Shown here piece by piece: positions 2,133-27,418 of a DNA stretch of 64,000 nucleotides. A model generated the notes under the pieces. The model worked only from the letters and a program-made list of their open reading frames with translations. It did not search any database and was not told the origin of the DNA. This DNA is from Phyllobacterium sp. OV277 (lineage in GTDB: Bacteria; Pseudomonadota; Alphaproteobacteria; Rhizobiales; Rhizobiaceae): the NCBI RefSeq assembly GCF_900104355.1, contig NZ_FNIY01000008.1, positions 1 through 64,000 of the forward strand. The letters run 5' to 3'. The position numbers and the translations under genes are program-made. Numbering within the stretch: position 1 is the first letter of the stretch; each line of letters starts with the position of its first letter.

Positions 2133-3242
2133 TTATGAGGCTCCTCCCTGTGATCCAACTTTGCCATTCGCCTGATTAAATCTGAGCACATTGGATGAAG
2201 TGGCGTCATCGCGCGCAAAGGCTTCACGCAGCTGACGGGTCGCATCGTCAAATGATACCGCGGCATCGTGAATATAGCCTCCCGTGCCCAAAAAAGAATG
2301 TGGGAGGCTGGGGTAACGTTTGCAGAATGCGTCGATCCCGGCTGCCTCCAGCCTGCGGGCATATTCCTCCCCTTCGTCGCGTAAGGGATCAAAGCCCGCG
2401 ATCAGAATTGCCGCCGGGGCCAGTCCTGTTACATCGCCGAGTATGGGGGATGCTCTTGGATCGAGACTATCGGATATTCTGGGCAGATATAGTTCGGTGA
2501 ACCACTCCATATGAATTCTTTCAAGACCAAAGCCACGCTCAAAGAGCGTATAGGATGGTCTCTGCCTGCTCATGTCGACCCATGGTATCCACAGCAACTG
2601 GAAACATGGCTTGTTAACATCATCTTTTGTTTGCTGGGCGACAACGGCGGCCAGATTACCGCCGGCACTGTCGCCGCCAACGGCTACGCGTGTTACGTCC
2701 ACACCCAATTCACCTGCGCGGATCGTAACCTGCCGGAATGCCGCCACGCCGTCATCAATAGCGGCCGGAAATGGATGCTCGGGCGCCAGCCGGTAATCAA
2801 TGGAGATGACCAGGCAGTTGGCATCCAGAGCTATTTGGCGGCAATGCATGTCATGGGAATCGAGTGATCCCGCCACGTATCCGCCACCATGATGGTAAAC
2901 CAGCGCCGCAGCCGGTTCACGCATGTTGCGCGGCCGGTAACTTCGTGCCGGTATGGCCCCGGCCGGTCCGGCAAGTTCCAATGATGCGATGGTGATATTT
3001 GAAGTTGCAGGATGGGCAAGCAAACCGCCCATTGCTTCCAATTCCTGTCTCGCCATTTGGACAGTTGGAGGTTCGTCCTTCCGCTTGAACAGATGCAAGA
3101 GGAACTGGACCTGAAGGTCGAGTGTCTGTCCATCGCGGATAATCGCGGGGCCACATATGGCCCGCATGAGCCATTTGGGAGAACGTATAAATGCCCGGAC
3201 TATTTTTGCTTCCAAGCGGCCGCGCAGGGTCGTCGATGTCAT
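2133..3242 (-). CDS. Alpha/beta hydrolase, hormone-sensitive-lipase (HSL) type esterase
   Basis: A 369-residue cytoplasmic esterase/lipase of family IV. The oxyanion-hole motif HHGGG is at residues 117-121, the nucleophile elbow GDSAG at 190-194 (Ser192), the acid probably Asp285 in GFDPLRDEG, and the base His315 in LPHSFL, a full catalytic triad. No signal peptide is visible. It hydrolyses short or medium carboxylic esters; the natural substrate is unknown. The gene follows the MFS transporter on the same strand after a 76-base gap with no operator of its own, so it is probably the second gene of that operon, consistent with uptake of an ester followed by intracellular cleavage. Confidence 0.88.
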   Translation of the reverse strand: MTSTTLRGRLEAKIVRAFIRSPKWLMRAICGPAIIRDGQTLDLQVQFLLHLFKRKDEPPTVQMARQELEAMGGLLAHPATSNITIASLELAGPAGAIPARSYRPRNMREPAAALVYHHGGGYVAGSLDSHDMHCRQIALDANCLVISIDYRLAPEHPFPAAIDDGVAAFRQVTIRAGELGVDVTRVAVGGDSAGGNLAAVVAQQTKDDVNKPCFQLLWIPWVDMSRQRPSYTLFERGFGLERIHMEWFTELYLPRISDSLDPRASPILGDVTGLAPAAILIAGFDPLRDEGEEYARRLEAAGIDAFCKRYPSLPHSFLGTGGYIHDAAVSFDDATRQLREAFARDDATSSNVLRFNQANGKVGSQGGAS

Positions 3243-3318
3243 AGCTCCATCCTCCTTCTCAAGTCGCGATCACCAAATAATTTCCCGGGCAATTTCGGTC
3301 ATGGATGGATGTGTTGCA

Positions 3319-4626
3319 TCATGCTGCTTTCATGGCGTTGGCATCCCTTGTGAACGTGCGCGCAGCTACGAACATGGCAATAGCTGTTATGAACAGAGCG
3401 ACGGGAATGACAAACATTGCCGCATGGAGACCGTCTGCCTTAAACTCTTCGGTCATTTGTGATGCGCCAGCCGCCAGCATGGCGGTGGCTGAGAAGTGAT
3501 CGGAAAGTAATCCAACGACAATCGGTCCGAAGGCTCCTCCCAGCAGATAAAGTGCCGCGAAGAAAACAGCCACGGCGGTTGCGCGCAGGCGCGGTTCCAC
3601 AACATCCTGAATGGCCGGATAGACGCAGGTGTAATAATTGTATTGAAGCAGCCAACCAAAGCTGAACACTGCCGTAAACAACGCAATCTGGGTGCCGCCG
3701 AGCGTCAGGGCATAAGCTGTTACACCTGCCGATACCAGCAGGCCGAATGCCCCGAACAATAGTCGGCCTCGTTCGGAGCGCTGATGCATCTTGTCGGCAA
3801 TCCATCCGCCAAATGTCAGGCCAATCAAGCCGGTGACACCTACGATCACCCCAGTGGTTATGGCTGCCTTTTCAAGTGGAAGGCCAAAATAGCGCTGTAA
3901 CAAAGGAACCATAAAGAAGTTGGTGGAATAGGCCGCGACATTTGCTGCAATTCCCGCAAGCGTGAGCCACCACATGGTTGGGATGCTGAGCACTTTGCGT
4001 ATGGGGCGCGTGACAGTCGTTTGCGCAATTTGCTGTTCTTCGGCTGCGCCGCGCCGTGGCTCCTTGATGAAAAAGATGAGAACTGCAAGGACAATGCCTG
4101 GAACCATGGCAAGGAAGAAAGGCGCCCGCCAGGAGCCGAAAGCGCGTACCACAGCGCCGGTGGTGAAGAAGGCGAGTATCAGTCCCAGCGGCAGTCCCAG
4201 CATGAATATCCCGAGAGCTCGAGAGCGTCTGTTCGACGGAAACAGATCTCCGATCAGTGCGCTTGCTGCCGGAGAATAGCTTGCTTCGCCAATTCCCACG
4301 CCAATACGCACAACGAGATAGGAAGAAAAATTCCAGACCAATCCGTTCAAGCCCGTGAAAGCGCTCCAGATAATGAGACCCCAGCCCATGATCTTCTTGC
4401 GCGAGCCCGTATCTGCAAGTCGTCCCATCGGCAGCCCGGCGATGGCGTAGACGACCGTAAAGGCTGAAGCGACAAGACCAAGCTGAAAATCTGTCAGCCC
4501 CCATTCGTGCCGGATCGGCTCATTAAGGATGGCCGGAATGGCACGATCAAAGAAGTTGAACAGATTGGCCAGAAAGAGCAGGCAGAGCACTCTCCATGCG
4601 TTACTGGCTTGTTTCCCCTCATTCAT
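3319..4626 (-). CDS. MFS transporter
   Basis: A 435-residue, 12-helix major facilitator. The signature loop between helices 2 and 3 reads GRLADTGSRKK at about residues 68-78, and a second related loop, GWIADKMHQRSERGR, lies after helix 8. It resembles anion/organic acid symporters of the spinster/ACS-like type, but the substrate is not predictable. The ATG at 4626 is preceded by a GGGGGAG ribosome binding site. Upstream lies one of the island's six related promoter/operator modules (4663-4694). It heads an operon with the esterase downstream. Confidence 0.88.
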   Translation of the reverse strand: MNEGKQASNAWRVLCLLFLANLFNFFDRAIPAILNEPIRHEWGLTDFQLGLVASAFTVVYAIAGLPMGRLADTGSRKKIMGWGLIIWSAFTGLNGLVWNFSSYLVVRIGVGIGEASYSPAASALIGDLFPSNRRSRALGIFMLGLPLGLILAFFTTGAVVRAFGSWRAPFFLAMVPGIVLAVLIFFIKEPRRGAAEEQQIAQTTVTRPIRKVLSIPTMWWLTLAGIAANVAAYSTNFFMVPLLQRYFGLPLEKAAITTGVIVGVTGLIGLTFGGWIADKMHQRSERGRLLFGAFGLLVSAGVTAYALTLGGTQIALFTAVFSFGWLLQYNYYTCVYPAIQDVVEPRLRATAVAVFFAALYLLGGAFGPIVVGLLSDHFSATAMLAAGASQMTEEFKADGLHAAMFVIPVALFITAIAMFVAARTFTRDANAMKAA

Positions 4627-4662
4627 GTCAATCTCCCCCAGTGTGACATATTAGTACACTCC

Positions 4663-4694
4663 AAACATGATATATAATCATGTTTTTAGTCAAG
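4663..4694 (-). promoter_or_regulatory. Promoter with palindromic operator (regulon site 1), driving MFS-esterase
   Basis: On the minus strand a -35 box TTGACT (complement of 4688-4693) is followed by the perfect palindrome AAACATGAT-ATATA-ATCATGTTT (4663-4685), which covers the spacer and -10 region. A repressor here would block polymerase. The same architecture recurs at five other promoters in this island, including the one beside tetR. Confidence 0.7.
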
Positions 4695-4783
4695 AGGAAA
4701 TGGCGACTAGTCTTTCAGCATTATGGATGACGCAAAGTTGAGAGTGTGCTGGAGACTTGAGGCCATGTGTTTAAAAACTGCAC

Positions 4784-5965: not shown

Positions 5966-6005
5966 CCAGATATTCCTCCCTCCTACATGACCGGTGATGG
6001 ACCTG

Positions 6006-6353
6006 CTACTGGCGCGACAACTTCAGGCTTTTGCAGATCAGTCCACCAAGCGCGCAGCCCTTCAGGGACATCTCATTGCCACTCACAGTTGCTTTGCCGT
6101 CATAGGTTTTCCCCTCCTTGAAGCTGATGACTTTGCCGGTATAGGCGCTACCGGTTCCGGCCATTGTACCAACGGATTTTCCCTTGTCGGGACCGCTTGC
6201 GACGGTGCCGCAGAATGCGGTCTGATTGCACGAAACGTATTGGATGATTGTTCCATCATCCATTTTCCACGACCCGACAATTGGCTCGCTGGCGAGAGCC
6301 GGGGTTGCGGTCATCAAAAGTGCAGCGATCATTGATGAATATTTTAGTTTCAT
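6006..6353 (-). CDS. Small exported protein, DUF2147-like
   Basis: 115 residues with a Sec signal peptide (MKLKYSSMIAALLMTATPALA, cleavage after about residue 21) and a mature domain starting EPIVGSWKMDDGTII. The pattern of a GxW start, paired cysteines (C42, C48 region) and a C-terminal MSLKGCALGGLICKS is typical of DUF2147 proteins, small periplasmic beta proteins of unknown function. It lies between the autotransporter (74 bases upstream) and the lactate-monooxygenase-like gene (40 bases downstream), all on the minus strand, so it is probably part of that operon. Confidence 0.75.
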   Translation of the reverse strand: MKLKYSSMIAALLMTATPALASEPIVGSWKMDDGTIIQYVSCNQTAFCGTVASGPDKGKSVGTMAGTGSAYTGKVISFKEGKTYDGKATVSGNEMSLKGCALGGLICKSLKLSRQ

Positions 6354-6427: not shown

Positions 6428-9400
6428 TTAGAATTTGATGCTGAGATCAGCCTTGATGGAGTGATCATTCATGTGATCAGCGATCTGGCCGCGGTATGAA
6501 ATGCCAAGCGAAGTGTTACGGCTCAGGTTGAAATCCAGACCTGCCTCAAGTGCCAACGCATCCTTTGCGATGGGCAGACCTTCGACGGAGAATGGAGTGC
6601 CGCCAGCAAATGCGAGTTTGGCTTCCGGCGTCGTGTCGCCCATGGCATGCTGCCACGCGACCATAGCCTTGGCGGTCATCGTCGTCGTATCGCCGAGGTG
6701 GAACTGGCGGGAGGCGCGAAGACCAAGCGTGGAGGTGGTGGCCTCTGTCGAACCGCTGAAGCCCGACAGCGCAGTGGCGCCACCAGTCTCCGTGAAGCTG
6801 TCAGTCTTCAACCGGGTATAGGCAAGTCCGGCAAATGGTTCGAACGAAGCAACGGAGGTTTTGATTTCGTAACCCGTTTCGCCGAATATCTGCAAGCTGT
6901 TGGCATCGTAGCTGGCATTGGTTGAGTCTGCGATGCCGCCAAAGGTCACCGACCGATCAGTGTCGATTTGATGATGCGCATAGGTGCCGCCAAAGCGCAG
7001 ACCAAGTGCATCCCATTGCGTGCCGCCATAGATACCAACCTGATAGCTATCGACCGAGGCGGATGAACCGGCTCCGTTCATCGAGGAATTGGCGTAGCCC
7101 GCCAGAATGCCGAGCCGCCAGTTATCAGCAACGATGCCATCAATACCGGTTACAAACCCACCGATTGAACGGTTGCGTTCGATGGCATTGCCACTGCTGT
7201 CGACGTGGTTCCATGAACCGTATGCTTGACCCCACATTGCTATGGTTGCTGCACCTGACTTGTCGGTGTTGCCGGAAGCGGGACCTGCGTTGACCGAAAT
7301 GCCATCAAAGGCCTCTCGCACCCTGTTGGTTGCAGCATCACGGAAGCGATTGTCCTCAAGGAGCATGCCTCTCAGGGAAGCATGCACGTCGCCGGAAAGG
7401 GCTGTCAGAGCTATGGGCAAATTGTCGTTGATCGTTGAGGCAGCCACCTCATTATAGAGTGCGATGGCCGGTTTCTTGGTATCCCCATTCCCGTTGCCTA
7501 CTGTGGATGGCGCGTCTGCCAACTGTTTTCCGGTCATTGTCTGTTGAGTGACCGCAGCTTGTGGCTGTTGGGTTTGCGCCGTATTATTGGCCGGGTCCTT
7601 CGCTGGGTTATCGCCAGTGACCGATGTTGGAGCGGTATTGGCTTCCGGTGCCGCCACCATCATGGATTGGATGCTTGCGGCGGCCATTTTCTGGTTTGCC
7701 GTTGTGCCTGCTGAGGCAAAGGACGTCCCGTTGCGTGCGAGGGTGAGGATCACATCATCAGGGTTGTAGTTAAGGTGCGCGCCGTAAAATCTGTAATACG
7801 GCGTGGCATTATCAAACCTGCCATTGACGCCTTCGTTGGCGGTCAGGATGACATAGCTCTTGCCTGCAAGGGTTTTCACCTGACCTTCAGTCAAAAGGGA
7901 GGTGCTGTTTTCAGGGCGGACATAGACCGTGCCACCATTGAGTGTAGCTGTACCTGTCACTGTCAGCTTGTCGCTGCGTCCGTCGCCTGCAACTTCAATG
8001 GCAAGGCCACTACCCTTGTCAAAGGATGCGTCGTCATTAACAGTCAATTTGCCGATGGCATTGCCCGGTGAAACCAGACCACCGCTCTTGGCTGACAAAC
8101 CACCGATCGTACCCGTACCGCCGATGATGCCGCCATTATTCACCGTCACCTTCGATGCGAGCGAGCCATTCACAGACAGCATGCCCTTGTTGACGATGGT
8201 ATCGCCGGTATAGGAGCTGGCGCCTGTCAGGACCGTTCGGCCGGAACCATTCTGTTCGACGCTGCCTTTACCGGAAATAACACCATCAAAAACATAGGTG
8301 TTGGAGCGATCGAACTGCAGCAGCGCCCTGTCTCCCATCTCAACATTGCCGATGATGGAGCCGGTTGTTCCGCCATTGCCGATGCGCAAGCCGCCATCTC
8401 TGATAAAAGTACCGCCAGTGTAGGTGTTCTCACCGGTTACGGTAAGGGTGCCGCCATTGAGCTTGTAGAGGGCGGCATCGCCGGTCAGATAACCGGCAAG
8501 GGTTCGTGCATCATCCGGGAAAAAGTAATGCCGCACCGTGCTGAAGAGATTGCTTGGCGAAACGGTGTAAAAGCCGGCAAGATCAGGATTAAGCCAATAC
8601 TGTTTGATATAATTGGCAAGATAGGCATGCATGCGCGTTGTCGGGTGAACATCATCCCAAAAGAGATAAGCGTTCTGTGCCTCAGAACCGCGCTCGAGTT
8701 TGAAACAGTCGGTATAATAGCAGCCTTGCGTAACGTTCGTGAAACCGAAATCGGAACCATACTTTACGGCCGTATCAACGAGAGGCCCGATCTTGGGCGC
8801 GAATATCGTGGCATCCGGATGCGAAGCCTGAAACTCACTGATAGCTGCGGCTATGCGCCTATTGAAGATGTCTGTCGTTTCATTGCCCGCCGCTATTGTC
8901 TGTCCATTTGCATTAAAGCGAGGCGTAGATCCGAAGTTTGGTAAGTCGGGGATGAGAAACTTGCGACCGCCAGCTGCGTAGAGCTTGTTCAGACTCTTGA
9001 GCGCTTCCTGCTTTGACGTATCCGCAGATGCTTCAGTCAGTGCGCCTTTGCCGACAACCTCAAATCCATCATTGGCACCGGCCCAGAATGTCACAAGGTC
9101 ATTCTTGTCGATGGAATTGGTGGCATATCCCGTCGCCTTCAGGAAAGCGTCTACTTGGGCGCCGGGGGTAGGAATCACTCGGCCCTCTATCCCGTCGGGA
9201 GTGAGATATTTCGCGCCGGCCACCGCGTAGTTTATGCTTTTTCCGCCATTGGGCCCTGTCGCACCATAATTCCCCGCGACAGCCCAACCCGTAAAGCCGA
9301 GTGCTGCTGCCGCAACGCCGCCAAATGAAACAGTCACTCCTCTGTCCTGATTTGGGACCAGATATTCATCCCAGACAGATCCATTGCTTATCCGTCCGTC

Positions 9401-9628
9401 AGTCGCGTGCTTGGCTATTTCGAGGAACGCACCGATGATCGCCCCCGATAAGCCGTTAGTCGCGTCCTTGAGCCCGCCATTGTCGGACAGGCTATCCCCG
9501 AAAATGATAGATCGGCGAAACGGAAAGTCGCCTGATTGGACCGGCTGAGCCCATGAAGGGGCCGCCAAAACAAGGGTTAGCGCGACCGAAGTCAGGGAAC
9601 GTGTGATGCTGTTTCGAACAATGCTCAT
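6428..9628 (-). CDS. Autotransporter with N-terminal GDSL esterase/lipase passenger
   Basis: 1066 residues. A signal peptide ends near residue 27 (APSWAQ). The passenger begins with GDSL hydrolase blocks: FGDSLSDNGG (Ser46), GAND (Asn186) and DDVHPT (Asp325/His328), the complete SGNH set. From about 390 there are autotransporter-associated beta repeats (TLTVTGENTYTGGT and similar). A Gln/Asn/Pro-rich linker lies around 660-730. A C-terminal beta-barrel (about 790-1066) ends in Phe, as required for outer-membrane insertion. It should display or release an esterase at the cell surface. It resembles EstA-type autotransporters but has extra beta-repeat domains. It lies 90 bases after the acyl-CoA synthetase gene, so released fatty acids could be activated by its neighbour. 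Confidence 0.92.
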   Translation of the reverse strand: MSIVRNSITRSLTSVALTLVLAAPSWAQPVQSGDFPFRRSIIFGDSLSDNGGLKDATNGLSGAIIGAFLEIAKHATDGRISNGSVWDEYLVPNQDRGVTVSFGGVAAAALGFTGWAVAGNYGATGPNGGKSINYAVAGAKYLTPDGIEGRVIPTPGAQVDAFLKATGYATNSIDKNDLVTFWAGANDGFEVVGKGALTEASADTSKQEALKSLNKLYAAGGRKFLIPDLPNFGSTPRFNANGQTIAAGNETTDIFNRRIAAAISEFQASHPDATIFAPKIGPLVDTAVKYGSDFGFTNVTQGCYYTDCFKLERGSEAQNAYLFWDDVHPTTRMHAYLANYIKQYWLNPDLAGFYTVSPSNLFSTVRHYFFPDDARTLAGYLTGDAALYKLNGGTLTVTGENTYTGGTFIRDGGLRIGNGGTTGSIIGNVEMGDRALLQFDRSNTYVFDGVISGKGSVEQNGSGRTVLTGASSYTGDTIVNKGMLSVNGSLASKVTVNNGGIIGGTGTIGGLSAKSGGLVSPGNAIGKLTVNDDASFDKGSGLAIEVAGDGRSDKLTVTGTATLNGGTVYVRPENSTSLLTEGQVKTLAGKSYVILTANEGVNGRFDNATPYYRFYGAHLNYNPDDVILTLARNGTSFASAGTTANQKMAAASIQSMMVAAPEANTAPTSVTGDNPAKDPANNTAQTQQPQAAVTQQTMTGKQLADAPSTVGNGNGDTKKPAIALYNEVAASTINDNLPIALTALSGDVHASLRGMLLEDNRFRDAATNRVREAFDGISVNAGPASGNTDKSGAATIAMWGQAYGSWNHVDSSGNAIERNRSIGGFVTGIDGIVADNWRLGILAGYANSSMNGAGSSASVDSYQVGIYGGTQWDALGLRFGGTYAHHQIDTDRSVTFGGIADSTNASYDANSLQIFGETGYEIKTSVASFEPFAGLAYTRLKTDSFTETGGATALSGFSGSTEATTSTLGLRASRQFHLGDTTTMTAKAMVAWQHAMGDTTPEAKLAFAGGTPFSVEGLPIAKDALALEAGLDFNLSRNTSLGISYRGQIADHMNDHSIKADLSIKF

Positions 9629-11740: not shown

Positions 11741-11793
11741 ATATGACATGTAATCATATTTAGAAAATGATACACATTCATGTTTTAAGTCAA
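11741..11793 (-). promoter_or_regulatory. Promoter with tandem operators (regulon site 2), driving fadD operon
   Basis: On the minus strand TTGACT (complement of 11788-11793) is followed by an imperfect ATGAA-TGTGT-ATCAT site and then ATATGATTACATGTCATAT (complement of 11741-11759). The last 19 bases are identical to the site beside tetR at 17522-17540. Confidence 0.7.
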
Positions 11794-11886: not shown

Positions 11887-11945
11887 TTGACTTAAAATAT
11901 GAATATGTATCAGATTATGAATCTGACAATATATCATATTTAATC
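11887..11945 (+). promoter_or_regulatory. Promoter with operators (regulon site 3), driving amidase 1
   Basis: TTGACT at 11887-11892 is followed by ATATGAATATGTATCA, a perfect CAGATT-ATG-AATCTG palindrome at 11911-11925, and a further ATATATCATATTT block to 11941. It is divergent from regulon site 2, about 94 bases away (11793 to 11887), with nearly the same flank (the GATTTTCGCTTGACTTAAAA stretch occurs at both). Confidence 0.65.
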
Positions 11946-12003
11946 GGCTGTCTTTTCATGCTGTGTGATTGGATGCCACGCCGGGCAGATCGGGAGAGAT
12001 TGC

Positions 12004-13485
12004 ATGAGCTCTGCAAGTACACAGGAATTGCTTCAAACATCCGGAACAGACAACACGGATACGATCCAAACTGCCGTCACAGGCAATCGGATGACGCCTA
12101 TTGCTGATGCAACAGAAACAGCGGCGATGGTTCGACGGGGCGATATCACCGCGCTTGAAGCGGTTGATGCAGCCATCGCTCGTGCTGAAGCATTGCAACC
12201 AAAATTGAACTTTATGGTCTCATCCTGTTTTGATCAGGCCCGCGATCGGGCAAAAAATGCAGATCTGACAGGCCCATTTGCCGGCGTTCCCTATCTCATC
12301 AAAGACATGGTCGATTTTGCCGGGCAAGCAACCCGTATGGGTTCCAATGCCACGAGAAATTTTCCGCCAGCAAAAGCATCCATCCCCTATGTTCAGGCAG
12401 TCGAGAGTTTGGGCGTAGTGGTGATCGGGAAAACAACGCTTGGTGAGTTCGGTCTCCTCCCGACCACTGAACCCCTGGCGTTTGGCCCAACCCGCAATCC
12501 CTGGAATACGAATGTAAGTACATCTGGCTCGTCCGGAGGCGCTGGCGCAGCTGTTGCTGCCGGGATTGTGCCTTTCGCGGATGGAAGTGATGGCGGTGGT
12601 TCTATTCGCAATCCCGCATCTGCATGCGGGTTGTTTGGCCTAAAGCCGAGCCAAGGACGGCTTGTGGGGCCGACGCCTGTCTCCGGTCCAATCGCGATTA
12701 CCGTCAAACATTGCCTGACACGAAGCGTCCGGGATTCGGCCACCATGTTTGCTGCAACCGAAAGAACAGGGGACGACGCGGTTTTCTCGCCTATCGGCAA
12801 AATAGAAGGTCCGGCAAACCGGCGGCTCAAGATTGGTTTTGTCAATGGAGGCATCACCGGCAACAAGGCACATCCTGAAGTTCAACGGGGCATGGATGAC
12901 ACCTGTCATCTGTTGCAGGAACTGGGACATCATGTTGAAGAAACGAGCTGGGCGATCGATGGTGAAGTTCTGACCAGAGACTTCATCGACTGTTACGCCA
13001 AAGCAGTCGCAGAGGGGACGGAGATGTTCCGCCAGCTTACAGGAGTCGAACCCAACACCACGATGTTTGAAACGACGACGTTGGGTTTACGTGAGATGGG
13101 GCTTAAGCTGACTGCCGACGACATAGCAGCGCTTCTCGAGCGTCGACAGGCCAATATAATGATCTATGAGGCCTGGCTGAAACAATTTGATCTTATCCTA
13201 TCGCCTGTTTTCCTGACGCCGCCAATCCCCTTGGGTGAAATAACGGGTGATCTTTCGGCTGACGAAGCTTTAGAGCGGTGCACGCATTTTATGAACGGCG
13301 CGTATCTTCAAAATTATATCGGAGCACCTGCCGCGAGTATTCCCTTGCATTGGACAGAGGATAATCTGCCTGTTGGCATGCAATTTGCCACTGGTATGGG
13401 CGAGGAACGAACATTGTTTGAACTTGCCTTTGAGCTCGAGGCAGCAAAGCCGTGGGCGCATCGCCGCCCGCCGGTCTTTGCCTGA
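12004..13485 (+). CDS. Amidase-signature hydrolase (amidase 1), 6-aminohexanoate-cyclic-dimer-hydrolase-like
   Basis: 493 residues with the Ser-cisSer-Lys triad of the amidase signature family: Lys100 in PYLIKD, Ser176 in SGSSGG, and Ser200 in GGGSIRNPAS. Overall layout, including DATETAAMVRRGDITALEA near the start and PWAHRRPP at the end, is like linear- and cyclic-amide hydrolases of the NylA type rather than GatA. The start at 12004 is chosen for the GGGAGA ribosome binding site. It is cytoplasmic with no signal peptide. It is paralogous to the amidase at 17741-19285 and stands alone behind regulon site 3. Hydrolysis of an amide bond is confident; the substrate is unknown. Confidence 0.88.
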   Translation: MSSASTQELLQTSGTDNTDTIQTAVTGNRMTPIADATETAAMVRRGDITALEAVDAAIARAEALQPKLNFMVSSCFDQARDRAKNADLTGPFAGVPYLIKDMVDFAGQATRMGSNATRNFPPAKASIPYVQAVESLGVVVIGKTTLGEFGLLPTTEPLAFGPTRNPWNTNVSTSGSSGGAGAAVAAGIVPFADGSDGGGSIRNPASACGLFGLKPSQGRLVGPTPVSGPIAITVKHCLTRSVRDSATMFAATERTGDDAVFSPIGKIEGPANRRLKIGFVNGGITGNKAHPEVQRGMDDTCHLLQELGHHVEETSWAIDGEVLTRDFIDCYAKAVAEGTEMFRQLTGVEPNTTMFETTTLGLREMGLKLTADDIAALLERRQANIMIYEAWLKQFDLILSPVFLTPPIPLGEITGDLSADEALERCTHFMNGAYLQNYIGAPAASIPLHWTEDNLPVGMQFATGMGEERTLFELAFELEAAKPWAHRRPPVFA

Positions 13486-13629: not shown

Positions 13630-13683
13630 TTGACACAAATGTGATTACATATCATAAATTTAAACATGATTGGTAATCATGTT
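13630..13683 (+). promoter_or_regulatory. Promoter with tandem operators (regulon site 4), driving porin and MFS
   Basis: TTGACA at 13630-13635 is followed by GTGATTACATATCAT and by the perfect palindrome AACATGATT-GGT-AATCATGTT (13663-13683). A leader of about 245 bases separates it from the porin start; I see no riboswitch-like fold in that leader. The 144 bases between the amidase stop and this site hold nothing recognisable. Confidence 0.68.
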
Positions 13684-16802: not shown

Positions 16803-17474
16803 TTACCCGTTTTTCATGAAATGTTTCATGTAGATGCGAACGAGGAGCTTGTAGTCGTCGAGCACACGCTTTGCCTCGTTGTCATCGACCCCCAGTGACA
16901 GCCGTGCAACGCTGCTGTTGAGATGCGCGATCATAAACACAGCGCGATCAAACATTTCAGATTGTTCGGGCTGAACGATACCGACACATGCCTTGGCAAT
17001 GATTTCGGCGTTGTCTCTGCTATCGGCGATATCAATGTGGTGTAACGTTTTGTCTGCTACAACGGCATTCAGCAAATCCTGAATTGCAGGGTTGTTGCGT
17101 ACCCGCTCGTAGTACCGATCGAGAAGATCATAAATGATATTCATCATATCATCGAAATTCTTGAAATCCCGAACCGCGTTCAAAATTGTTTCGCGCGTTT
17201 CTACGGCATAATTCTGATAAAGCGATGCCAGTATCGCCGATTTGTTCGGAAAATATTGATAGAGCGTCGAGATCGGGCTGCCGATCTTCGTTGCAATTTC
17301 CTTCATCGTAACAGCGTCAATGCCCTTCTCGCCGATGAGCGTGAAGGTCGCCTCGAGGATGGCGTCAACGCGCTGCTTGCTACGCTTTTGCTGCGGCCGG
17401 CGACGGGTTTCGCTATCGAGAAGATCATCGTCTGCCTGCTCTGGAAATGGCACTATGACTTGCTCTCTTGGCAT
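16803..17474 (-). CDS. TetR-family transcriptional repressor, probable master regulator of the island
   Basis: 223 residues. The N-terminal tetra-helical DNA-binding domain has its helix-turn-helix at about 55-80 (AVTMKEIATKIGSPISTLYQYFPNKSAIL), preceded by an RxxQKRSKQRVDAIL start helix typical of TetR. The rest is a helical ligand-binding and dimer domain without recognisable specificity. The gene is divergent from the FadL-remnant/amidase 2/aldolase genes. The intervening 81 bases hold regulon site 5, so both directions are probably repressed by this protein. Related sites at five other promoters make it the obvious candidate for controlling the whole 2-27 kb region. The ligand is presumably a pathway intermediate. 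Confidence 0.88.
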   Translation of the reverse strand: MPREQVIVPFPEQADDDLLDSETRRRPQQKRSKQRVDAILEATFTLIGEKGIDAVTMKEIATKIGSPISTLYQYFPNKSAILASLYQNYAVETRETILNAVRDFKNFDDMMNIIYDLLDRYYERVRNNPAIQDLLNAVVADKTLHHIDIADSRDNAEIIAKACVGIVQPEQSEMFDRAVFMIAHLNSSVARLSLGVDDNEAKRVLDDYKLLVRIYMKHFMKNG

Positions 17475-17488: not shown

Positions 17489-17540
17489 TTGACTCTAAAT
17501 CTGAATGTGTATCATGTTTAAATATGATTACATGTCATAT
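17489..17540 (+). promoter_or_regulatory. Promoter with tandem operators (regulon site 5), between tetR and amidase 2 operon
   Basis: TTGACT at 17489-17494 is followed by GAATGTGTATCAT and by ATATGATTACATGTCATAT (17522-17540). The stretch from GAATGTGTATCAT to the end matches site 2 almost base for base, with a one-base spacer difference. It lies 15 bases upstream of the tetR start, so bound repressor would also block tetR transcription. Confidence 0.72.
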
Positions 17541-17555: not shown

Positions 17556-17747
17556 ATGAATGCAAGGGGAATAAATTTTGTTATCGCCACATTATTATTA
17601 GGCGCCTCTGTAGCGCAAGCCGGTGGTTTTGCCCACCGCAACGCAGATATTGATATTCTCTATGGGGCCAAGCATGGCCCGATGAATGCGTCACTGATTA
17701 ACGACTGGGGTTATGCCTTCCAAGCCTCCTACAAAACAAAATGGTGA
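17556..17747 (+). pseudogene. 63-residue exported remnant of a FadL-like outer-membrane protein
   Basis: The frame has a proper GAGG ribosome binding site, a signal peptide (MNARGINFVIATLLLGASVA, cleavage after QA) and a mature start GGFAHRNADIDILY. That start resembles the N terminus of rhizobial OMPP1/FadL proteins (GGFxRGxADTDILF). After about 20 further residues it ends in YAFQASYKTKW, which looks like a terminal beta-strand. The intervening several hundred residues of a FadL barrel are absent, so I read it as an internal-deletion relic, although it may still be expressed as a small exported protein. Its TGA overlaps the start of amidase 2. Confidence 0.5.
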
Positions 17748-19285: not shown

Positions 19286-19422
19286 TGAGTAACCAATTTC
19301 ACCTCACGACTACCAGTTATTTTACACCTGCATAGGCCGGAACGCCGCCGCATATCGGCCGCTTCCGGCGGCTGAAGTGAAAAGTGTTCGTCGTTCGTTT
19401 GTTAAACTCAGTGGAGGAAAGC

Positions 19423-20193
19423 ATGCCAAATAATGTTGATGTTTCAGTTCGCAATTCGATTTCCGATGAGGAATGGGAAGTTCGCGTCAATCTTGCCGCA
19501 ACCTATCGTGCCGTTGCAATCTATGGGTGGGATGATCTTATTTTCACCCATATTTCAGCACGCGTGCCGGGTCCCGAACATCACTTCCTCATCAATCCTT
19601 ACGGGTTGATGTTTGAGGAGATTACAGCTGGCAGTCTGGTCAAAGTGGATATGGACGGGAATCCTGTTACGAAATCCGCATTCCCGGTCAATCCGGCCGG
19701 GTTCACCATTCATTCGGCGGTGCATGAGGTTCGTGAAGATGCCGGATGTGTTATCCACCTGCACACACCTGACGGCACGGCAGTTTCAACCTATGAGGGC
19801 CGCCTCCTACCTCTCAATCAAACAGCGCAGCTCATCCTTGGTGATCTCGCATATCACGACTACGAGGGTGTCGCTTTGGATCATGATGAGCGACCGCGTA
19901 TTCAGAACGATCTGGGCAGTAAAAACCTGATGTTGTTGCATAATCATGGAACTTTGGCAGTCGGGCGCACGGCCGCTGAAGCATTCACCCGAATGTATTA
20001 TCTGGAGCGCGCGTGCACGATGCAGGTACGGACGCTCATGCAGGGCGGCGCACAGCATGCAACGGAAGAACCGGTGATCGAAAGCAACGCCGAGCTCGGT
20101 AAATCAGAGGGCTTTGCGAAACTTGCCAATCAACTTGTATGGCCAGCAATATTGCGAAAGCTGGATCGCGTGAACCCGGGTTTCCGGCAGTAG
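19423..20193 (+). CDS. Class II aldolase/adducin-family protein
   Basis: 256 residues. The Zn ligands are seen as HLHTPDG (His-x-His, about residue 110) and HNHG (about 173), and GWDDLIFTHISAR is the typical substrate-binding start. Family members are aldolases (fuculose-, rhamnulose-, ribulose-phosphate), epimerases or non-catalytic adducin-like proteins. This one is of the long adducin-like branch with unknown substrate, often encoded among catabolic genes. The start at 19423 is fixed by GGAGGAAAGC just upstream. It ends the amidase 2 operon and is followed by a strong terminator at 20201-20238. Confidence 0.85.
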   Translation: MPNNVDVSVRNSISDEEWEVRVNLAATYRAVAIYGWDDLIFTHISARVPGPEHHFLINPYGLMFEEITAGSLVKVDMDGNPVTKSAFPVNPAGFTIHSAVHEVREDAGCVIHLHTPDGTAVSTYEGRLLPLNQTAQLILGDLAYHDYEGVALDHDERPRIQNDLGSKNLMLLHNHGTLAVGRTAAEAFTRMYYLERACTMQVRTLMQGGAQHATEEPVIESNAELGKSEGFAKLANQLVWPAILRKLDRVNPGFRQ

Positions 20194-20200
20194 CAGATGA

Positions 20201-20353: not shown

Positions 20354-20406
20354 TTGACTCAAAACATGATTAAGTATCATATAATAACCTGATCATATAT
20401 CATATT
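20354..20406 (+). promoter_or_regulatory. Promoter with tandem operators (regulon site 6), driving the six-gene oxidoreductase operon
   Basis: TTGACT at 20354-20359 is followed by the perfect palindrome ATGAT-TAAGT-ATCAT (20366-20380) and by TGAT-CATAT-ATCA (20390-20402) running into ATATT. The first palindrome covers the spacer and -10 zone. Confidence 0.7.
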
Positions 20407-20453
20407 GAACCAGTGTGGTTTCGACTGGTCGTTACGAAGGCGGGGAGAACAAG

Positions 20454-22306: not shown

Positions 22307-23503
22307 GTGATCAATACTCAGTCGCAACACAATAGCCACCCGAATTGGCTTGTTGGCAGCCCCACGAAAGTTCAGGTGGCGGCCGCATTGTGGATGGGGT
22401 CCATAGGTCTGTTGATCCTTGGCCTACAGCCAATCTTGCTGGGCGCGATGTTCACTGAAGCGCGTCTCAATCTGGATGAGCTTGCACTCGTCGCGACCGC
22501 TGAGCTCATCACTATCGGAATAGGTTCGGTTGTTTTCGGGCTGGCTCTATCCACACGTCATTTGAAGCTCAAATCGGCCGTAATGATGTTGCTCATCGCT
22601 GGCCTCAATCAATCAATGTTTTACGCACATACGCCCCACAAAATTCTGGGGATTAGAGCAGTGACGGGGTTGATTGAGGGGGGAGCTGTCGCCGTTGCCA
22701 TGGAACTTATCGCAAGGTCGCGCCATGCTGAATTCGTAGGTGGCCTTTTTGTCACTCTGCAAACGGTAGCGCAGAGTCTCCTTGCCCTTCTGTTCGCCCT
22801 ATGGGTCATACCGCACTTTGGCTCAAATGGAGGTTTTTCCGCCCTCGCCATCGTTGGCATCGCGTCGCTTGCGCTGGCCGCCCTTGTGCCGTCGTATTAT
22901 GGCGATCTTCCAAAACAAGCGGGGTCAGCAGGCGGCGTTCTCTCACTCAAAGCCATAATCTCTTTGCTTGTCATCGTTCTTCTGATCATGGGTCTGGGTG
23001 CCATCTGGGCGTTTCTCGAACCGATCGGTGCTCAGAATGGCATCGATGGCAAGACCGTGGGTGTGATGTTGTCCGCTTCGCTTGCTGTTCAGGTTGTTGC
23101 CGCGCTTGTGGCAACATCAGTTGCTCAACGCCTCAATTATCGGGCAGCGCTTGCGGGTTGTGGACTGATCGTTATCGGATCGGCGGCAGTTCTGAGCCAA
23201 AAGCCGTCACTTGCCGTGTGTTGGGTCGCTGTCATCCTTCTTGGTTCGATATGGACATTCATTGTTCCATTCTTCGTCGCGCTCACGCTTGATGCAGACC
23301 CCAAGCGGGACACGGTTCTCCTCGTTCCAGCCGCTACTCTGACAGGTGCAGCGATGGGCCCTTTGGCGGCTTCGGTGTTTATTGTTGATGGAAATGTCGG
23401 TCCGGTCCTGCCCTTCAGCAGCTCCGTCGCCCTTGGCAGCATGGTTCTGCTGATGGTGTTCATACTGATAGCGCGTCGCAGGCCAGTCACGCTGAGGACC
23501 TGA
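22307..23503 (+). CDS. MFS transporter (YbfB/CynX-like)
   Basis: 398 residues with 12 predicted helices. The start is GTG at 22307, preceded by GAGGGGA. Loops are short and the usual helix 2-3 signature is weak (LALSTRHLKLKS), as in several small permeases and in arabinose-efflux-like MFS proteins. The direction of transport is unknown. It sits 98 bases after the aldehyde dehydrogenase and 5 bases before the FAD oxidase gene, so it is co-transcribed. Confidence 0.82.
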   Translation: MINTQSQHNSHPNWLVGSPTKVQVAAALWMGSIGLLILGLQPILLGAMFTEARLNLDELALVATAELITIGIGSVVFGLALSTRHLKLKSAVMMLLIAGLNQSMFYAHTPHKILGIRAVTGLIEGGAVAVAMELIARSRHAEFVGGLFVTLQTVAQSLLALLFALWVIPHFGSNGGFSALAIVGIASLALAALVPSYYGDLPKQAGSAGGVLSLKAIISLLVIVLLIMGLGAIWAFLEPIGAQNGIDGKTVGVMLSASLAVQVVAALVATSVAQRLNYRAALAGCGLIVIGSAAVLSQKPSLAVCWVAVILLGSIWTFIVPFFVALTLDADPKRDTVLLVPAATLTGAAMGPLAASVFIVDGNVGPVLPFSSSVALGSMVLLMVFILIARRRPVTLRT

Positions 23504-23508
23504 AGCAA

Positions 23509-24870
23509 ATGACCAGCAAATCATCCTCCCAAACCTTGATTGCAGCAAACCAACCCGGACAGGCCAATGCCGTGAGTGAAACCATCAAACCGAAGTGGCA
23601 AAACTGGTCAGGCTTCGTCACTGCCAACCCGCAAATGCGCGTGGCTCCTGATGATCTGGATGCACTTGCCATGGTCGTCAAAAATGCGCCGGGCCCAATC
23701 CGGATCGCCGGTGCCGGCCATTCCTTTACGCCTCTGGTCAAAAGCGAGGGCACGATCGTGTCGCTCGAAAAATTCTCTGGCCTGAAATCGCACCAAACGG
23801 AAGAGTTGCTGGCACGTGTGGGCGCAGGCACGCAAATTGGAACCCTTGCCAAGCTCTTGCACGGCGTTGGTCAGGCACTGCCCAACATGGGCGATATTGA
23901 CCGGCAGGCGTTTGGTGGCGGCCTTGGAACCGCAACGCACGGATCGGGCATTAAGCTCGGTGCTTACCATACACAGCTCGAAGCAATCCAGCTCGTTGAT
24001 GGCCTTGGTGCTGTCAGGGAATATGCCAAGAAAACAGACGGTGACGTGATCAATGCGATGGGTGCGTCTCTGGGCGCGTTCGGTGCAATCACCGAAGTGA
24101 CAATACGCAATGTTGCCGATTACAAATTGCATCGACGCCGCTGGACAGCACCTGTCGCTGAGGTGCTTGACCAATTTGAACAGGTCATGAGTGCGCATCG
24201 CTCTGCCGAATTCTTCTACATCCCGTTTTCGGGTCGGGCGCTGATGCTGGCGAGTGATATTTCCGAGGGTGAACCAGGTGTCCGGCCACACGATAGTGAC
24301 GACGACGCAGTGGCCACGCTTAAAACCCTTCGAAACTATATAGGATGGTTTCCGTGGTTGCGCCGCCGCCTGATCGGCACGGCTATCGCCAAACTACCCG
24401 ACGAAGACTATGTCGAACATTGGCTGAATGTGTATCCCAGTGATCGCAAGACCAAGTTCAATGAAATGGAATATCACCTGCCATTCGAAGAGGGTGCCAA
24501 GGCGCTTCGCGACATCATTACCTTGCTTGAGACGAGATTCCCCGAGGTCTATTTTCCCATCGAAGTAAGGGTTGTTGCTGCCGACGACGTCTGGCTTAGC
24601 CCGTTCTATAAGCGGCGAACCTGTTCCATCGCCATTCATCATGACGCCGCCGAGGACCCATTGCCATTTTTCGCCGCGGCGGAATCGATCTTCCGTATTT
24701 ATGGCGGCCGTCCGCACTGGGGCAAAATGCACAATCTCAAGGCCAAGGATCTGAAAGGCATCTATCCGCGCTGGGATGACGCGATGGAAGTCCGCCGCGA
24801 CATAGACCCTCAAAACAGGTTTGTGTCCCCCTATGTTGCTCGGTTGCTTGGAATTGAAAATGCCGGATGA
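23509..24870 (+). CDS. FAD-linked oxidase of the D-arabinono-1,4-lactone / L-gulonolactone oxidase family
   Basis: 453 residues. The N-terminal PCMH-type FAD domain includes GAGHSFTPL (His71, the position of covalent FAD attachment in GULO/alditol oxidases) and FGGGLGTATHGSG. The C-terminal ALO domain ends with GGRPHWGKMHNL, the family active-site motif. The protein should oxidise a sugar lactone, alditol or other polyhydroxylated alcohol, passing electrons to oxygen or an acceptor. No signal peptide is seen. Its stop overlaps the start of the PLP enzyme by 11 bases, which indicates tight coupling. The true substrate may be unrelated to ascorbate-type lactones. Confidence 0.87.
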   Translation: MTSKSSSQTLIAANQPGQANAVSETIKPKWQNWSGFVTANPQMRVAPDDLDALAMVVKNAPGPIRIAGAGHSFTPLVKSEGTIVSLEKFSGLKSHQTEELLARVGAGTQIGTLAKLLHGVGQALPNMGDIDRQAFGGGLGTATHGSGIKLGAYHTQLEAIQLVDGLGAVREYAKKTDGDVINAMGASLGAFGAITEVTIRNVADYKLHRRRWTAPVAEVLDQFEQVMSAHRSAEFFYIPFSGRALMLASDISEGEPGVRPHDSDDDAVATLKTLRNYIGWFPWLRRRLIGTAIAKLPDEDYVEHWLNVYPSDRKTKFNEMEYHLPFEEGAKALRDIITLLETRFPEVYFPIEVRVVAADDVWLSPFYKRRTCSIAIHHDAAEDPLPFFAAAESIFRIYGGRPHWGKMHNLKAKDLKGIYPRWDDAMEVRRDIDPQNRFVSPYVARLLGIENAG

Positions 24871-26089: not shown

Positions 26090-26133
26090 CTAGGGAATTG
26101 GCGCCTGTTCACGTTGGATTAAGGAGCGGAGCG

Positions 26134-26970
26134 ATGAGTAACTCAGGAAAAGAAGCGCGCGTTGTCTTGATAACCGGTGCCTCTTCGGGCATCGGAAAGA
26201 TGTGTGCCTCACATCTCCATAGGCTGGGCTACCGTGTTTATGGAACCAGCAGACGTGCGGCCGTGGCGGGATCTGCCGAAAACGGTTTCGCGCTCATTCC
26301 GATGGACGTTACCTCGGAACCATCCATCGTAAGTGCCCTTGAACTGATTATGGCGCGCGAAGGCCGGATTGATATTGTCATCAACAATGCGGGCAATGGC
26401 ATTGCGGGTGCCATTGAAGACACGACGATAGCGGAAGCTCAGGAGCAGCTTGATACGAATTTTTTTGGGACACTTCGCGTTTGCCGCAACGTCTTGCCAT
26501 TGCTTCGGCGCCAGAAGCGCTCTTATCTGATCAACATCAGTTCAATTGGCGGTATCATCGGTATTCCGTTTCAGGGGCTTTACAGCGCCAGCAAATTTGC
26601 CATTGAAGGCATGAGCGAAGTTCTTGCTACCGAAGTTAAATCACAGGGGGTGAATGTTGTGCTTGTGGAGCCCGGTGATTTTCGCACCGGTTTCTCGGCT
26701 GAACGGCGGATCGTGGCAAACGCGTTAAAGCCAACGATATATTCCAAACACTGCGAGGCCGCACTCAAGGTCATGGAAGCAGATGAGCTTGGCGGTTCTA
26801 CCCCCGAACCCATCGCCAGGATGATTGAGCGGATCGTCAATATGCGATCACCAAAATTGCGGTACATGGTCGGGCCAACGGTCCAAAAACTCTCGGTTTC
26901 CATCTTCAAGAAACTGCTGCCGCAAAAGCTGTTTCAGCTGTTCATCATGAAGTATTACAAGATCGCTTAG
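26134..26970 (+). CDS. Short-chain dehydrogenase/reductase (SDR)
   Basis: 278 residues of the classical SDR fold: nucleotide-binding TGASSGIG at 14-21, NNAG at 84-87, and the catalytic set Ser136/137, Tyr150 and Lys154 in GLYSASKFAIEGMSEVL. The C-terminal extension (KLSVSIFKKLLPQKLFQLFIMKYYKIA) is hydrophobic/basic and may be membrane-associated. It should oxidise an alcohol or reduce a ketone with NAD(P). The start has a GGAGCGGAGCG ribosome binding site. It lies 44 bases after the PLP enzyme. Confidence 0.87.
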   Translation: MSNSGKEARVVLITGASSGIGKMCASHLHRLGYRVYGTSRRAAVAGSAENGFALIPMDVTSEPSIVSALELIMAREGRIDIVINNAGNGIAGAIEDTTIAEAQEQLDTNFFGTLRVCRNVLPLLRRQKRSYLINISSIGGIIGIPFQGLYSASKFAIEGMSEVLATEVKSQGVNVVLVEPGDFRTGFSAERRIVANALKPTIYSKHCEAALKVMEADELGGSTPEPIARMIERIVNMRSPKLRYMVGPTVQKLSVSIFKKLLPQKLFQLFIMKYYKIA

Positions 26971-26998
26971 AAGCTTTAAACCAGTCTGGAGAGATGTT

Positions 26999-27418
26999 AT
27001 GAACTACAAAATTATCAGCCTCCCAATGCTTGCAATCCTCGCGCTTGCCGTTGGCAATGTTCAGGCACATGCCGCAGAACGCAAATACAAAGCCAATGGC
27101 CCAACCTCGTCAGCCATCACCGGTGACATCTCGATCGATGACAACGGCATCAAATTTGCCAATGGTAAAACGCTCGCGTTCTCATCGCGTACAACTGGCG
27201 ATTTTAGCTGGGGTGGCGAACAGGTTGATGCCTCGATTTACAAGGTCAAAACACCATCTGACCCCAAATTGAAAGGCGGCAACATGCTCTGCGGTAAAAA
27301 AGTGACCTATGTCGCCACATGGATTGCTGAAACATCATTGGCACTGGCTGTTTTCACGGATGACAAAGCGCCTACAGGCGACGACACAATGTGTGCATTA
27401 TATACGTACGACAAGTGA
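26999..27418 (+). CDS. Small exported protein of unknown function
   Basis: 139 residues with a Sec signal peptide (MNYKIISLPMLAILALAVG..., cleavage near HAAE at about residue 26). The mature part is beta-rich with two cysteines (NMLCGKKVTY and TMCALYTYDK) likely to form a disulfide. I do not recognise a family. GGAGAG precedes the start. It lies 28 bases after the SDR and closes the operon begun at 20454. It may bind the substrate or a product in the periplasm. Confidence 0.65.
   Translation: MNYKIISLPMLAILALAVGNVQAHAAERKYKANGPTSSAITGDISIDDNGIKFANGKTLAFSSRTTGDFSWGGEQVDASIYKVKTPSDPKLKGGNMLCGKKVTYVATWIAETSLALAVFTDDKAPTGDDTMCALYTYDK

What the first reader, a model, noticed from the sequence alone, without database searches (positions are those of the whole stretch)
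2133..27418. A 25-kb catabolic regulon with six promoters sharing one TetR-type operator design
Six promoters (4663-4694, 11741-11793, 11887-11945, 13630-13683, 17489-17540, 20354-20406) all have a TTGACT/TTGACA -35 box followed within about 50 bp by ATGAT-N5-ATCAT-like palindromes, and one of them sits beside the only TetR gene of the region. Together they head operons for surface esterase, porin, three MFS carriers, two amidases, an esterase, acyl-CoA synthetase, aldolase and five oxidoreductases. I know of no described pathway with this set. I infer a single repressor controlling a complete uptake and degradation system for an ester/amide-linked, possibly acylated, compound.
Basis: partly seen in the sequence, partly recalled or inferred. 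Interest (0 to 1): 0.85.

Follow-up and report, generated by a model that had tools for sequence, protein, structure and literature searches.

The report
TetR-controlled sphingolipid-type breakdown gene set
Six promoters in a rhizobial-family bacterium share one paired on/off switch design that most likely answers to a single repressor, and the genes they drive look like a kit for taking up and breaking down ceramide-like (sphingolipid) lipids, a pathway that is only partly understood in bacteria.

Summary
Five promoters carry two ATGAT-N5-ATCAT-like palindromes 23-25 bp apart, 5-6 bp behind a TTGAC(T/A) box; the sixth has one perfect site and a degenerate second. In the host's 5.33-Mb genome the full design occurs five times, all here. 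The TetR link rests on footprinting: TetR homologues beside an ALO-oxidase/PLP-enzyme operon carry TGAT-N5-ATCA upstream (11 of 18 loci exact, 0.12 expected; 64 of 75 named, mostly Mesorhizobium loci, partly the same), with the same -35/operator/operator layout in 60 of 67. The oxidase (23509) and PLP enzyme (24860) are homologues of Pseudomonas aeruginosa SphC (40%) and SphD (39%), the sphingosine operon. The first carrier (3319) groups with Spinster/SPNS2 lipid transporters; relatives of the aldehyde dehydrogenase sit beside fatty-acyl-CoA ligases. Best reading: a TetR-repressed ceramide/sphingoid-base catabolic regulon using a kinase-free route. Single-repressor regulon: about 0.9. Substrate class: about 0.65, untested. 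A new variant of a known kind (the SphR regulon).

The parts
16803..17474 (-). TetR-family repressor (TetR_C_22), proposed regulon repressor, divergent from promoter P5
   Evidence: Pfam; homologue within 5 kb of the PLP-enzyme homologue in 16 of the 21 other family genomes that have the latter; footprint
4644..4693 (-). P1: -35 TTGACT 4688-4693, operator 4667-4681 (perfect), degenerate second site 4644-4658
11743..11793 (-). P2: -35 TTGACT 11788-11793, operators 11767-11781 and 11743-11757
11887..11937 (+). P3: -35 TTGACT 11887-11892, operators 11899-11913 and 11923-11937 (2 mismatches each)
13630..13680 (+). P4: -35 TTGACA 13630-13635, operators 13641-13655 and 13666-13680
17489..17538 (+). 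P5: -35 TTGACT 17489-17494, operators 17501-17515 and 17524-17538; 15 bp from the tetR start, so probably also autoregulatory
20354..20403 (+). P6: -35 TTGACT 20354-20359, operators 20366-20380 and 20389-20403; counterpart of the MFS3-ALO-DTA promoter of Mesorhizobium
3319..4626 (-). MFS1, Spinster (Spns)-type carrier
   Evidence: PDB sequence search: 6e8j 2.3e-37 (labelled only as an MFS transporter; that it is the Hyphomonas Spns is recalled), SPNS2 2.7e-29, SPNS1 7.2e-29, next family 4.2e-10
2133..3242 (-). hormone-sensitive-lipase-type esterase (Abhydrolase_3), second gene behind P1
4784..5965 (-). FMN 2-hydroxyacid dehydrogenase/oxidase; membership uncertain (no operator, 462 bp behind 6428)
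6428..9628 (-). autotransporter with GDSL lipase passenger (surface esterase), second gene behind P2
9719..11521 (-). FadD-type long-chain acyl-CoA synthetase, first gene behind P2
   Evidence: 789 bits to PRK07059, below its 869 cut-off
11965..13485 (+). amidase-signature hydrolase 1 (P3); true start probably 12091
   Evidence: 50% identical to amidase 2
13930..15087 (+). outer-membrane porin (Porin_2), P4
15158..16552 (+). MFS2 carrier, behind P4
17741..19285 (+). amidase-signature hydrolase 2 (P5)
19384..20193 (+). class II aldolase (PRK07044 family, above its cut-off), probably behind P5
20415..22208 (+). divergent aldehyde dehydrogenase; relatives sit next to fatty-acyl-CoA ligases; true start probably downstream of 20415
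22307..23503 (+). MFS3 carrier (MFS_1 match just below the Pfam cut-off), found beside tetR and ALO-DTA in relatives
23509..24870 (+). SphC homologue: FAD-linked ALO/TIGR01679 oxidoreductase, no twin-arginine start
   Evidence: 40% to P. aeruginosa SphC, 321 bits
24860..26089 (+). SphD homologue: PLP enzyme with D-threonine-aldolase-like predicted fold
   Evidence: 39% to P. aeruginosa SphD, 230 bits
26134..26970 (+). SDR, best NCBIfam hit 3-ketodihydrosphingosine reductase (319 bits, below the 400 cut-off); ATG at 26134
26999..27418 (+). small protein with signal-like N-terminus, no family

Best explanation
The region is one regulon, repressed by the TetR protein at 16803-17474. Two TetR dimers probably bind the two palindromes that lie between the -35 box and about +1 of each promoter, shutting the operons until an inducer is present (inferred from position; binding and inducer not shown). 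The genes form a ceramide/sphingoid-base uptake and degradation pathway. Surface GDSL esterase and porin admit the lipid; Spinster-type and other MFS carriers move it inward. Amidase-signature enzymes split the N-acyl bond, as a ceramidase does. [quoted passage not shown] The aldehyde dehydrogenase oxidises the aldehyde to a fatty acid, and FadD activates the released fatty acids for beta-oxidation. The core, tetR facing MFS3-ALO-DTA, is a Rhizobiaceae module; the amidases, aldehyde dehydrogenase and the rest were added and put under the same operator. Shown by sequence: operators, their conservation with the TetR, SphC/SphD and Spinster homology. Inferred: substrate, order of steps, directions of transport, order of recruitment.
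For: Operator pairs unique to this locus in the genome. TetR-operator co-conservation: 11 of 18 unnamed loci exact against 0.12 expected, 16 of 18 within one mismatch against 2.42, other spacers at most 1 exact; 64 of 75 named loci exact, all 60 of those with ALO and DTA within one mismatch; -35/op1/op2 layout in 60 of 67. A stricter pattern searched in 297 family genomes hits only 3: this one and the stretch beside tetR in two relatives. PLP-enzyme and TetR homologues within 5 kb in 16 of 21 other genomes with the former. P. aeruginosa locus cytochrome c5 - ALO - DSD1 PLP enzyme - transporter - SphR, matching the published sphBCD description (PMC5150637, passages). SphC 40% / 321 bits and SphD 39% / 230 bits to the window proteins, with shared invariant motifs. 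Published prediction of oxidation then aldol cleavage to long-chain aldehyde and glycine (PMC3900636, passages); sphBC needed for sphingosine metabolism (PMC11893366, abstract, passages and one section). MFS1 Spinster similarity. PLP enzyme model matches beta-hydroxyaspartate and D-threonine aldolases first. Aldehyde dehydrogenase relatives beside a fatty-acyl-CoA ligase at 3 of 4 loci read. FadD-like gene near ALO-DTA in 2 of the 18 tetR loci and 1 of 80 named loci. A Yoonia plasmid groups cytochrome c, ALO, GDSL hydrolase, AMP ligase, PLP enzyme, hydrolase and enoyl-CoA hydratase.
Against: No binding, expression or growth data. The SphC/SphD substrate is itself unproven: the 2025 paper leaves open whether SphB and SphC act on sphingosine directly, and sphD was dispensable there. 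Identity of 39-40% does not fix substrate. The window oxidase lacks the TAT signal and cytochrome partner of SphC, and no SphA, SphB or SphR homologue was found in the window at E 0.01. The amidases resemble 6-aminohexanoate-cyclic-dimer hydrolase and generic amidase-signature enzymes, not ceramidases. The SDR falls below the KdsR cut-off. Bacterial Spns proteins may carry other compounds (a mycobacterial Spns drug transporter appears in the listing). Amidase, aldehyde dehydrogenase, Spinster or autotransporter homologues were not beside ALO-DTA in the 38 loci compared (one 23% MFS1 hit), and the aldehyde dehydrogenase is absent at E 1e-30 from 346 other genomes of the order and 19 of the genus, so co-inheritance of the whole set cannot be tested. 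Most named footprint loci are Mesorhizobium, at least six repeat contigs of the 18-locus set, and they are not independent. The strict pattern missed 3 of the host's own 5 promoters and most relatives, so it shows specificity, not sensitivity.
Confidence: 0.62

Rival explanations
1. Same TetR regulon, but the substrate is a smaller N-acylated amino-diol or amino-alcohol (for example phenylserinol or chloramphenicol-like amides, acyl-amino-alditols), cut by the same amidase - oxidase - retro-aldol logic.
For: The oxidase and PLP enzyme chemistry only requires a 2-amino-1,3-diol; ALO relatives include xylitol oxidase; a cytosolic oxidase plus MFS carrier suits a soluble substrate; the esterase is distantly like chloramphenicol hydrolase (202 bits, cut-off 500); a phenylacetate cluster lies next door at 34-53 kb.
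Against: Spinster-type carrier, FadD, an aldehyde dehydrogenase whose relatives sit beside fatty-acyl-CoA ligases, surface lipase-type esterase and SphC/SphD homology all point to long chains; the phenylacetate cluster has no operator site within one mismatch.
Confidence: 0.2
2. A generic lipid or amide scavenging regulon (N-acylethanolamines, acyl-homoserine lactones, fatty-acid amides) in which the ALO-DTA operon handles a different compound and is merely co-regulated.
For: The amidases match fatty acid amide hydrolase (6dhv, 7.4e-25) among others; many hydrolases and FadD; the related tetR-ALO-DTA loci have no amidase homologue beside them.
Against: The same operator pair drives the amidases and ALO-DTA, so one inducer is expected to serve both.
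Confidence: 0.13
3. The palindromes are sites of another regulator and TetR merely lies close by.
For: No binding test; a LysR gene lies at 29690.
Against: The palindrome lies upstream of TetR homologues of 35-47% identity across several genera; LysR-like genes were called in only 7 of the 18 tetR loci.
Confidence: 0.04

Closest known systems
SphR regulon of Pseudomonas aeruginosa (sphA, sphBCD, cerN)
   Same: SphC and SphD homologues adjacent in the same order; porin plus amide hydrolase plus oxidase plus aldolase co-regulated; sphingoid-base logic
   Different: Regulator is a TetR, predicted repressor, not the AraC-family SphR; oxidase has no TAT signal and no cytochrome c partner; MFS carriers; amidase-signature enzymes instead of neutral ceramidase; aldehyde dehydrogenase, FadD, surface esterase and SDR added
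tetR / MFS3-ALO-DTA module of Mesorhizobium and other Rhizobiaceae
   Same: Homologous TetR (35-47%), carrier, ALO (about 56-66%) and DTA (about 45-57%); same -35/operator/operator promoter in most
   Different: No homologue of the window's amidases, aldehyde dehydrogenase or surface esterase beside it, FadD-like gene only in 2 of 18; I found no description of it
Spinster/SPNS2 lipid transporters
   Same: MFS1 is closest in the PDB to these by a wide margin
   Different: Transport substrate and direction untested
D-threonine aldolase / beta-hydroxyaspartate aldolase
   Same: Predicted fold matches these first
   Different: 16-17% identity; only Ala_racemase_N matched in Pfam up to E 1; C-terminal motif RP(T/R/Q)QSE conserved in the 10 sequences aligned

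Membership tests
SphBCD-type sphingosine catabolic operon | SphC: FAD-linked ALO/TIGR01679 oxidoreductase | tested here: met
   Window ALO 592 bits and P. aeruginosa SphC 468 bits to TIGR01679, cut-off 292; 40% identity over 424 aa
SphBCD-type sphingosine catabolic operon | SphD: PLP aldolase-like enzyme directly after SphC | tested here: met
   24860-26089 overlaps the end of the ALO gene; 39% identity over 398 aa, 1e-74
SphBCD-type sphingosine catabolic operon | SphB: c-type cytochrome upstream of SphC, TAT-exported SphC | tested here: not met
   No SphB homologue in the window by tblastn and no twin-arginine start; no CXXCH gene within 2.5 kb on the ALO strand in the 23 family-f1 loci with ALO, one of them the host's second copy
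SphBCD-type sphingosine catabolic operon | Control by SphR (AraC) and response to sphingosine | tested here: not met
   No SphR homologue in the window; TetR with conserved operators instead; the response to sphingosine itself was not testable
TetR-family repressor regulon | TetR_N HTH plus TetR C-terminal domain | tested here: met
   PF00440 2.5e-13, PF17928 5.3e-18
TetR-family repressor regulon | Palindromic operators overlapping core promoters, conserved with homologous TetR | tested here: met
TetR-family repressor regulon | Protein binds the operator and is released by a ligand | not testable with these tools
   no biochemistry available
Spinster lipid transporter | Sequence closer to Spns than to other MFS families | tested here: met
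   SPNS2 2.7e-29 and SPNS1 7.2e-29 against 4.2e-10 for the next family in the PDB
3-ketodihydrosphingosine reductase KdsR | Score above NCBIfam NF049977 cut-off | tested here: not met
   318.6 bits, cut-off 400
Neutral ceramidase | Ceramidase family domain | tested here: not met
   Both amidases match only PF01425 Amidase at E 0.001; a ceramidase role would be by analogy

The most novel reading that the evidence does not exclude
A self-contained, kinase-free and sphingosine-1-phosphate-lyase-free ceramide degradation pathway, from surface esterase to acyl-CoA, gathered under one TetR and one paired-operator promoter by recruiting new operons to an older Rhizobiaceae sphingoid-base module. It would be the first TetR-controlled sphingolipid catabolic regulon that I know of and would supply the aldehyde-to-acyl-CoA steps that the SphC/SphD prediction still needs.
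Probability: 0.42. Interest if true: 0.78.

Novelty: new variant of a known kind. Interest (0 to 1): 0.64.

Why it matters
[quoted passage not shown] Here SphC and SphD homologues are wired to amidases, an aldehyde dehydrogenase, FadD and a Spinster-type carrier by one distinctive operator. That makes the predicted route (sphingoid base to glycine plus long-chain aldehyde) testable with six reporters and four purified enzymes. It also predicts a function for a module found in many Mesorhizobium and some Rhizobium species, with consequences for how plant-associated bacteria use plant, fungal or sphingomonad sphingolipids. The regulon shows how a transcription factor's network can grow from one promoter to six while the promoter layout is kept almost to the base.

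Tried and rejected
Single-site statistics at two mismatches were uninformative. Palindromes with other spacers were used as controls: none gave more than one exact match, though spacer 10 gave 8 of 18 and 50 of 75 loci within one mismatch (not explained further). Searching the window's first 25 kb by megablast in plasmids gave no match. RepC was found only on contig C14, so C6 is not shown to be a plasmid. The second ALO-DTA copy on C15 has no tetR called in its 20 kb and no exact operator, ten one-mismatch words. An SDR next to ALO in another genome is only 33% identical over 137 aa and was not counted. The Polaromonas FadD next to the aldehyde dehydrogenase is only 26% identical to the window FadD, so 'same FadD' was rejected and only 'same kind of neighbourhood' kept. 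Amidase neighbourhoods in Shinella and Sphingobium gave no common theme. MFS3 matched nothing in the PDB at E 1. NylA-type nylon-oligomer degradation was considered because the amidase's best solved relative is 6-aminohexanoate-cyclic-dimer hydrolase, and rejected because the other genes do not fit it. The genome-contig scan does not name the window's own genome; I infer family Rhizobiaceae because G057:C2, same family, has the length and match start of Sinorhizobium sp. BG8 NZ_CP044012.1.

Full report
Observation. The six promoters are real. On the promoter strand they read TTGAC(T/A), 5-6 bases, a palindrome of the form NTGA-N7-TCAN (best ATGAT-N5-ATCAT), 8-10 bases, and a second such palindrome. 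Five promoters have the pair, with start-to-start offsets of 23, 23, 24, 24 and 25; the 4663 promoter has one perfect palindrome and a poor second one. TGA and TCA are invariant in the 11 sites tabulated. Shuffling the window gives 0.075 pairs on average (largest 2, 200 shuffles) against 5 seen; shuffling only the intergenic stretches gives 0.007 (largest 1, 300 shuffles). Counting single sites with two mismatches would have missed this (30 seen, 33.5 expected). In the whole host genome (5.33 Mb, 26 contigs) the -35 plus first-operator pattern matches exactly five times, all here, with 12 further places at two mismatches and 2 in the reversed control at up to two mismatches; the -35 plus two-operator pattern matches five times, all here, with none in the reversed control.

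Regulator. Among the 17 proteins of 2133-27418 that I scanned, the only regulator is the TetR at 16803-17474. Of 297 family genomes, 78 (host included) have a homologue at E 1e-20 or better and 22 (host included) a homologue of the PLP enzyme at E 1e-30. In 16 of the 21 other genomes with the PLP enzyme the two lie within 5 kb. In the 18 loci read that have both, tetR faces the ALO - PLP enzyme operon; MFS3 was called as a frame of its own in 10 of the 18. In these 18 loci TGAT-N5-ATCA lies upstream of tetR exactly in 11 (0.12 expected from shuffles) and within one mismatch in 16 (2.42 expected); no other spacer from 0 to 11 gives more than one exact match, although spacer 10 gives 8 within one mismatch. 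In the genome collection scan 198 relatives were found and the best 80 kept. Five of the 80 were dropped because no TetR reading frame was called; of the other 75, 64 are exact and 70 within one mismatch, and all 60 that also have ALO and DTA are within one mismatch. Of 67 loci with tetR and MFS3 or ALO, 61 have a TTGACN hexamer ending 6-8 bases before the TGA of the first palindrome, and 60 of them a second palindrome 25-28 bases on. A stricter form of the window's pattern searched in 297 family genomes hit three: the host (2 of its 5 promoters) and two relatives, both next to tetR on the side of the ALO operon; it is specific but not sensitive. Sites, regulator and layout are therefore inherited together. 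I take P6, before the aldehyde dehydrogenase - MFS3 - ALO - PLP enzyme genes, as the ancestral promoter and the others as recruits; that is inference.

Core enzymes. A homologue of the ALO protein lies on a P. aeruginosa record in the order cytochrome c5, D-arabinono-1,4-lactone oxidase, DSD1-family PLP enzyme, transporter, sphR, argB. [quoted passage not shown] The window ALO and PLP proteins are 40% and 39% identical to SphC and SphD over 424 and 398 residues, share TIGR01679 membership in the case of ALO (592 and 468 bits, cut-off 292) and many invariant motifs. In one unnamed family (f87, probably Pseudomonadaceae, since the ALO of one member is 81% identical to that of P. aeruginosa) the six loci with an ALO call all have a CXXCH gene upstream, a twin-arginine start and the PLP gene behind; a seventh had no ALO call. 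The window protein lacks the TAT signal and the cytochrome, so the oxidation is probably cytosolic, with MFS3 bringing the substrate in. [quoted passage not shown] DiGianivittorio et al. (PMC11893366, abstract, passages and one section) showed that sphBC are needed for sphingosine metabolism but not that they act on it directly, and found sphD dispensable in their conditions. The AlphaFold model of the PLP enzyme (pLDDT 74, weak in the C-terminal third) matches beta-hydroxyaspartate aldolase, D-threo-3-hydroxyaspartate dehydratase and D-threonine aldolase first.

The rest of the kit. MFS1 at 3319-4626 is closest among solved structures to 6e8j (2.3e-37; recalled to be the Hyphomonas Spns) and human SPNS2 (2.7e-29) and SPNS1 (7.2e-29), with the next family at 4.2e-10. 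That search was run to test the sphingolipid idea and could have gone the other way; the same search with MFS3 found nothing. The aldehyde dehydrogenase at 20415 has relatives at 55-61% identity in Polaromonas, Sulfitobacter and Klebsiella, each next to a fatty-acyl-CoA ligase and in two of the three behind a GMC oxidoreductase; a Tsukamurella relative is not. At E 1e-30 it is absent from 346 other genomes of the order and from 19 others of the genus, so the extended regulon is a recent or rare assembly. FadD, two amidases that are 50% identical to each other, a GDSL autotransporter, an Abhydrolase_3 esterase, a porin and a class II aldolase complete the set. The SDR's best named family is 3-ketodihydrosphingosine reductase but below the cut-off. 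A FadD-like gene lies near ALO-DTA in 2 of the 18 tetR loci and 1 of the 80 named loci. A Yoonia plasmid groups cytochrome c, ALO, GDSL hydrolase, AMP ligase, PLP enzyme, hydrolase and enoyl-CoA hydratase genes.

Proposed mechanism. Without inducer, TetR occupies both palindromes, the first in the -35/-10 spacer and the second near the start point. With inducer (proposed: a sphingoid base or derivative) it leaves, and P1-P6 fire together, tetR probably included because P5 lies 15 bp from its start. Surface esterase and porin give access; MFS1, MFS2 and MFS3 give transport; amidases free the base from its fatty acid; [quoted passage not shown] aldehyde dehydrogenase and FadD pass the chain to beta-oxidation. 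The class II aldolase, SDR and FMN dehydrogenase may deal with hydroxylated bases and 2-hydroxy fatty acids; this is speculation, and the FMN dehydrogenase may not be in the regulon at all.

What speaks against it. Nothing here shows binding, induction or activity. Identity near 40% does not fix substrate. The amidases are not ceramidases by family. The related single-operon loci have no homologues of the window's amidases, aldehyde dehydrogenase or surface esterase beside them, which allows a smaller natural substrate. I put the single-repressor regulon at about 0.9 and the sphingolipid-type substrate at about 0.65.

Literature. Searches over the held library found no description of a TetR-controlled sphingolipid catabolic regulon or of the Rhizobiaceae module; subscription journals are mostly not held.

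Noticed in passing
window 34136-53312: A phenylacetate (paa) catabolic cluster with PaaA/PaaC-type protein, Fer2/FAD reductase, ALDH-MaoC fusion, AMP ligase, PaaX regulator and a TetR at 40740-41336; G+C up to 0.61 against 0.53 in the regulon; no operator site within one mismatch.
   Followed up: partly
window 17556-17747: A 63-aa reading frame with a signal-peptide-like start lies between promoter P5 and amidase 2; no family search was run on it.
   Followed up: no
L091 (G000:C15:1040001-1060000): The host carries a second MFS3-ALO-DTA copy (52/72/63% identical) without tetR and without an exact operator; a same-genus genome, G063 (L092), also has MFS3-ALO-DTA without tetR.
   Followed up: partly
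L239, L240 (Pseudomonas syringae plasmids): The only plasmid-collection relatives of MFS1 at E 1e-40 (4 records, 66%) are MFS genes on P. syringae-group plasmids; in the two read, no ALO or PLP gene is annotated nearby.
   Followed up: partly
window 95-903: Phd/YefM antitoxin plus PIN-domain pair at the end of the contig.
   Followed up: no
window 28005-32296: Just outside the regulon: another Abhydrolase_3 esterase, a LysR regulator and a second Porin_2 gene; no operator site within one mismatch.
   Followed up: no
window 56811-62966: RND efflux pump genes with two OmpR-type response regulators nearby.
   Followed up: no
L141 (Yoonia sp. SS1-5 plasmid): Cytochrome c, ALO, DUF819 protein, GDSL hydrolase, AMP ligase, PLP enzyme, alpha/beta hydrolase and beta-oxidation-type genes lie together, a parallel to this regulon.
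   Followed up: partly
18 tetR loci and 75 named loci: TGAT-N10-ATCA matches within one mismatch in 8 of 18 and 50 of 75 upstream regions, more than other off-spacers; not explained.
   Followed up: no
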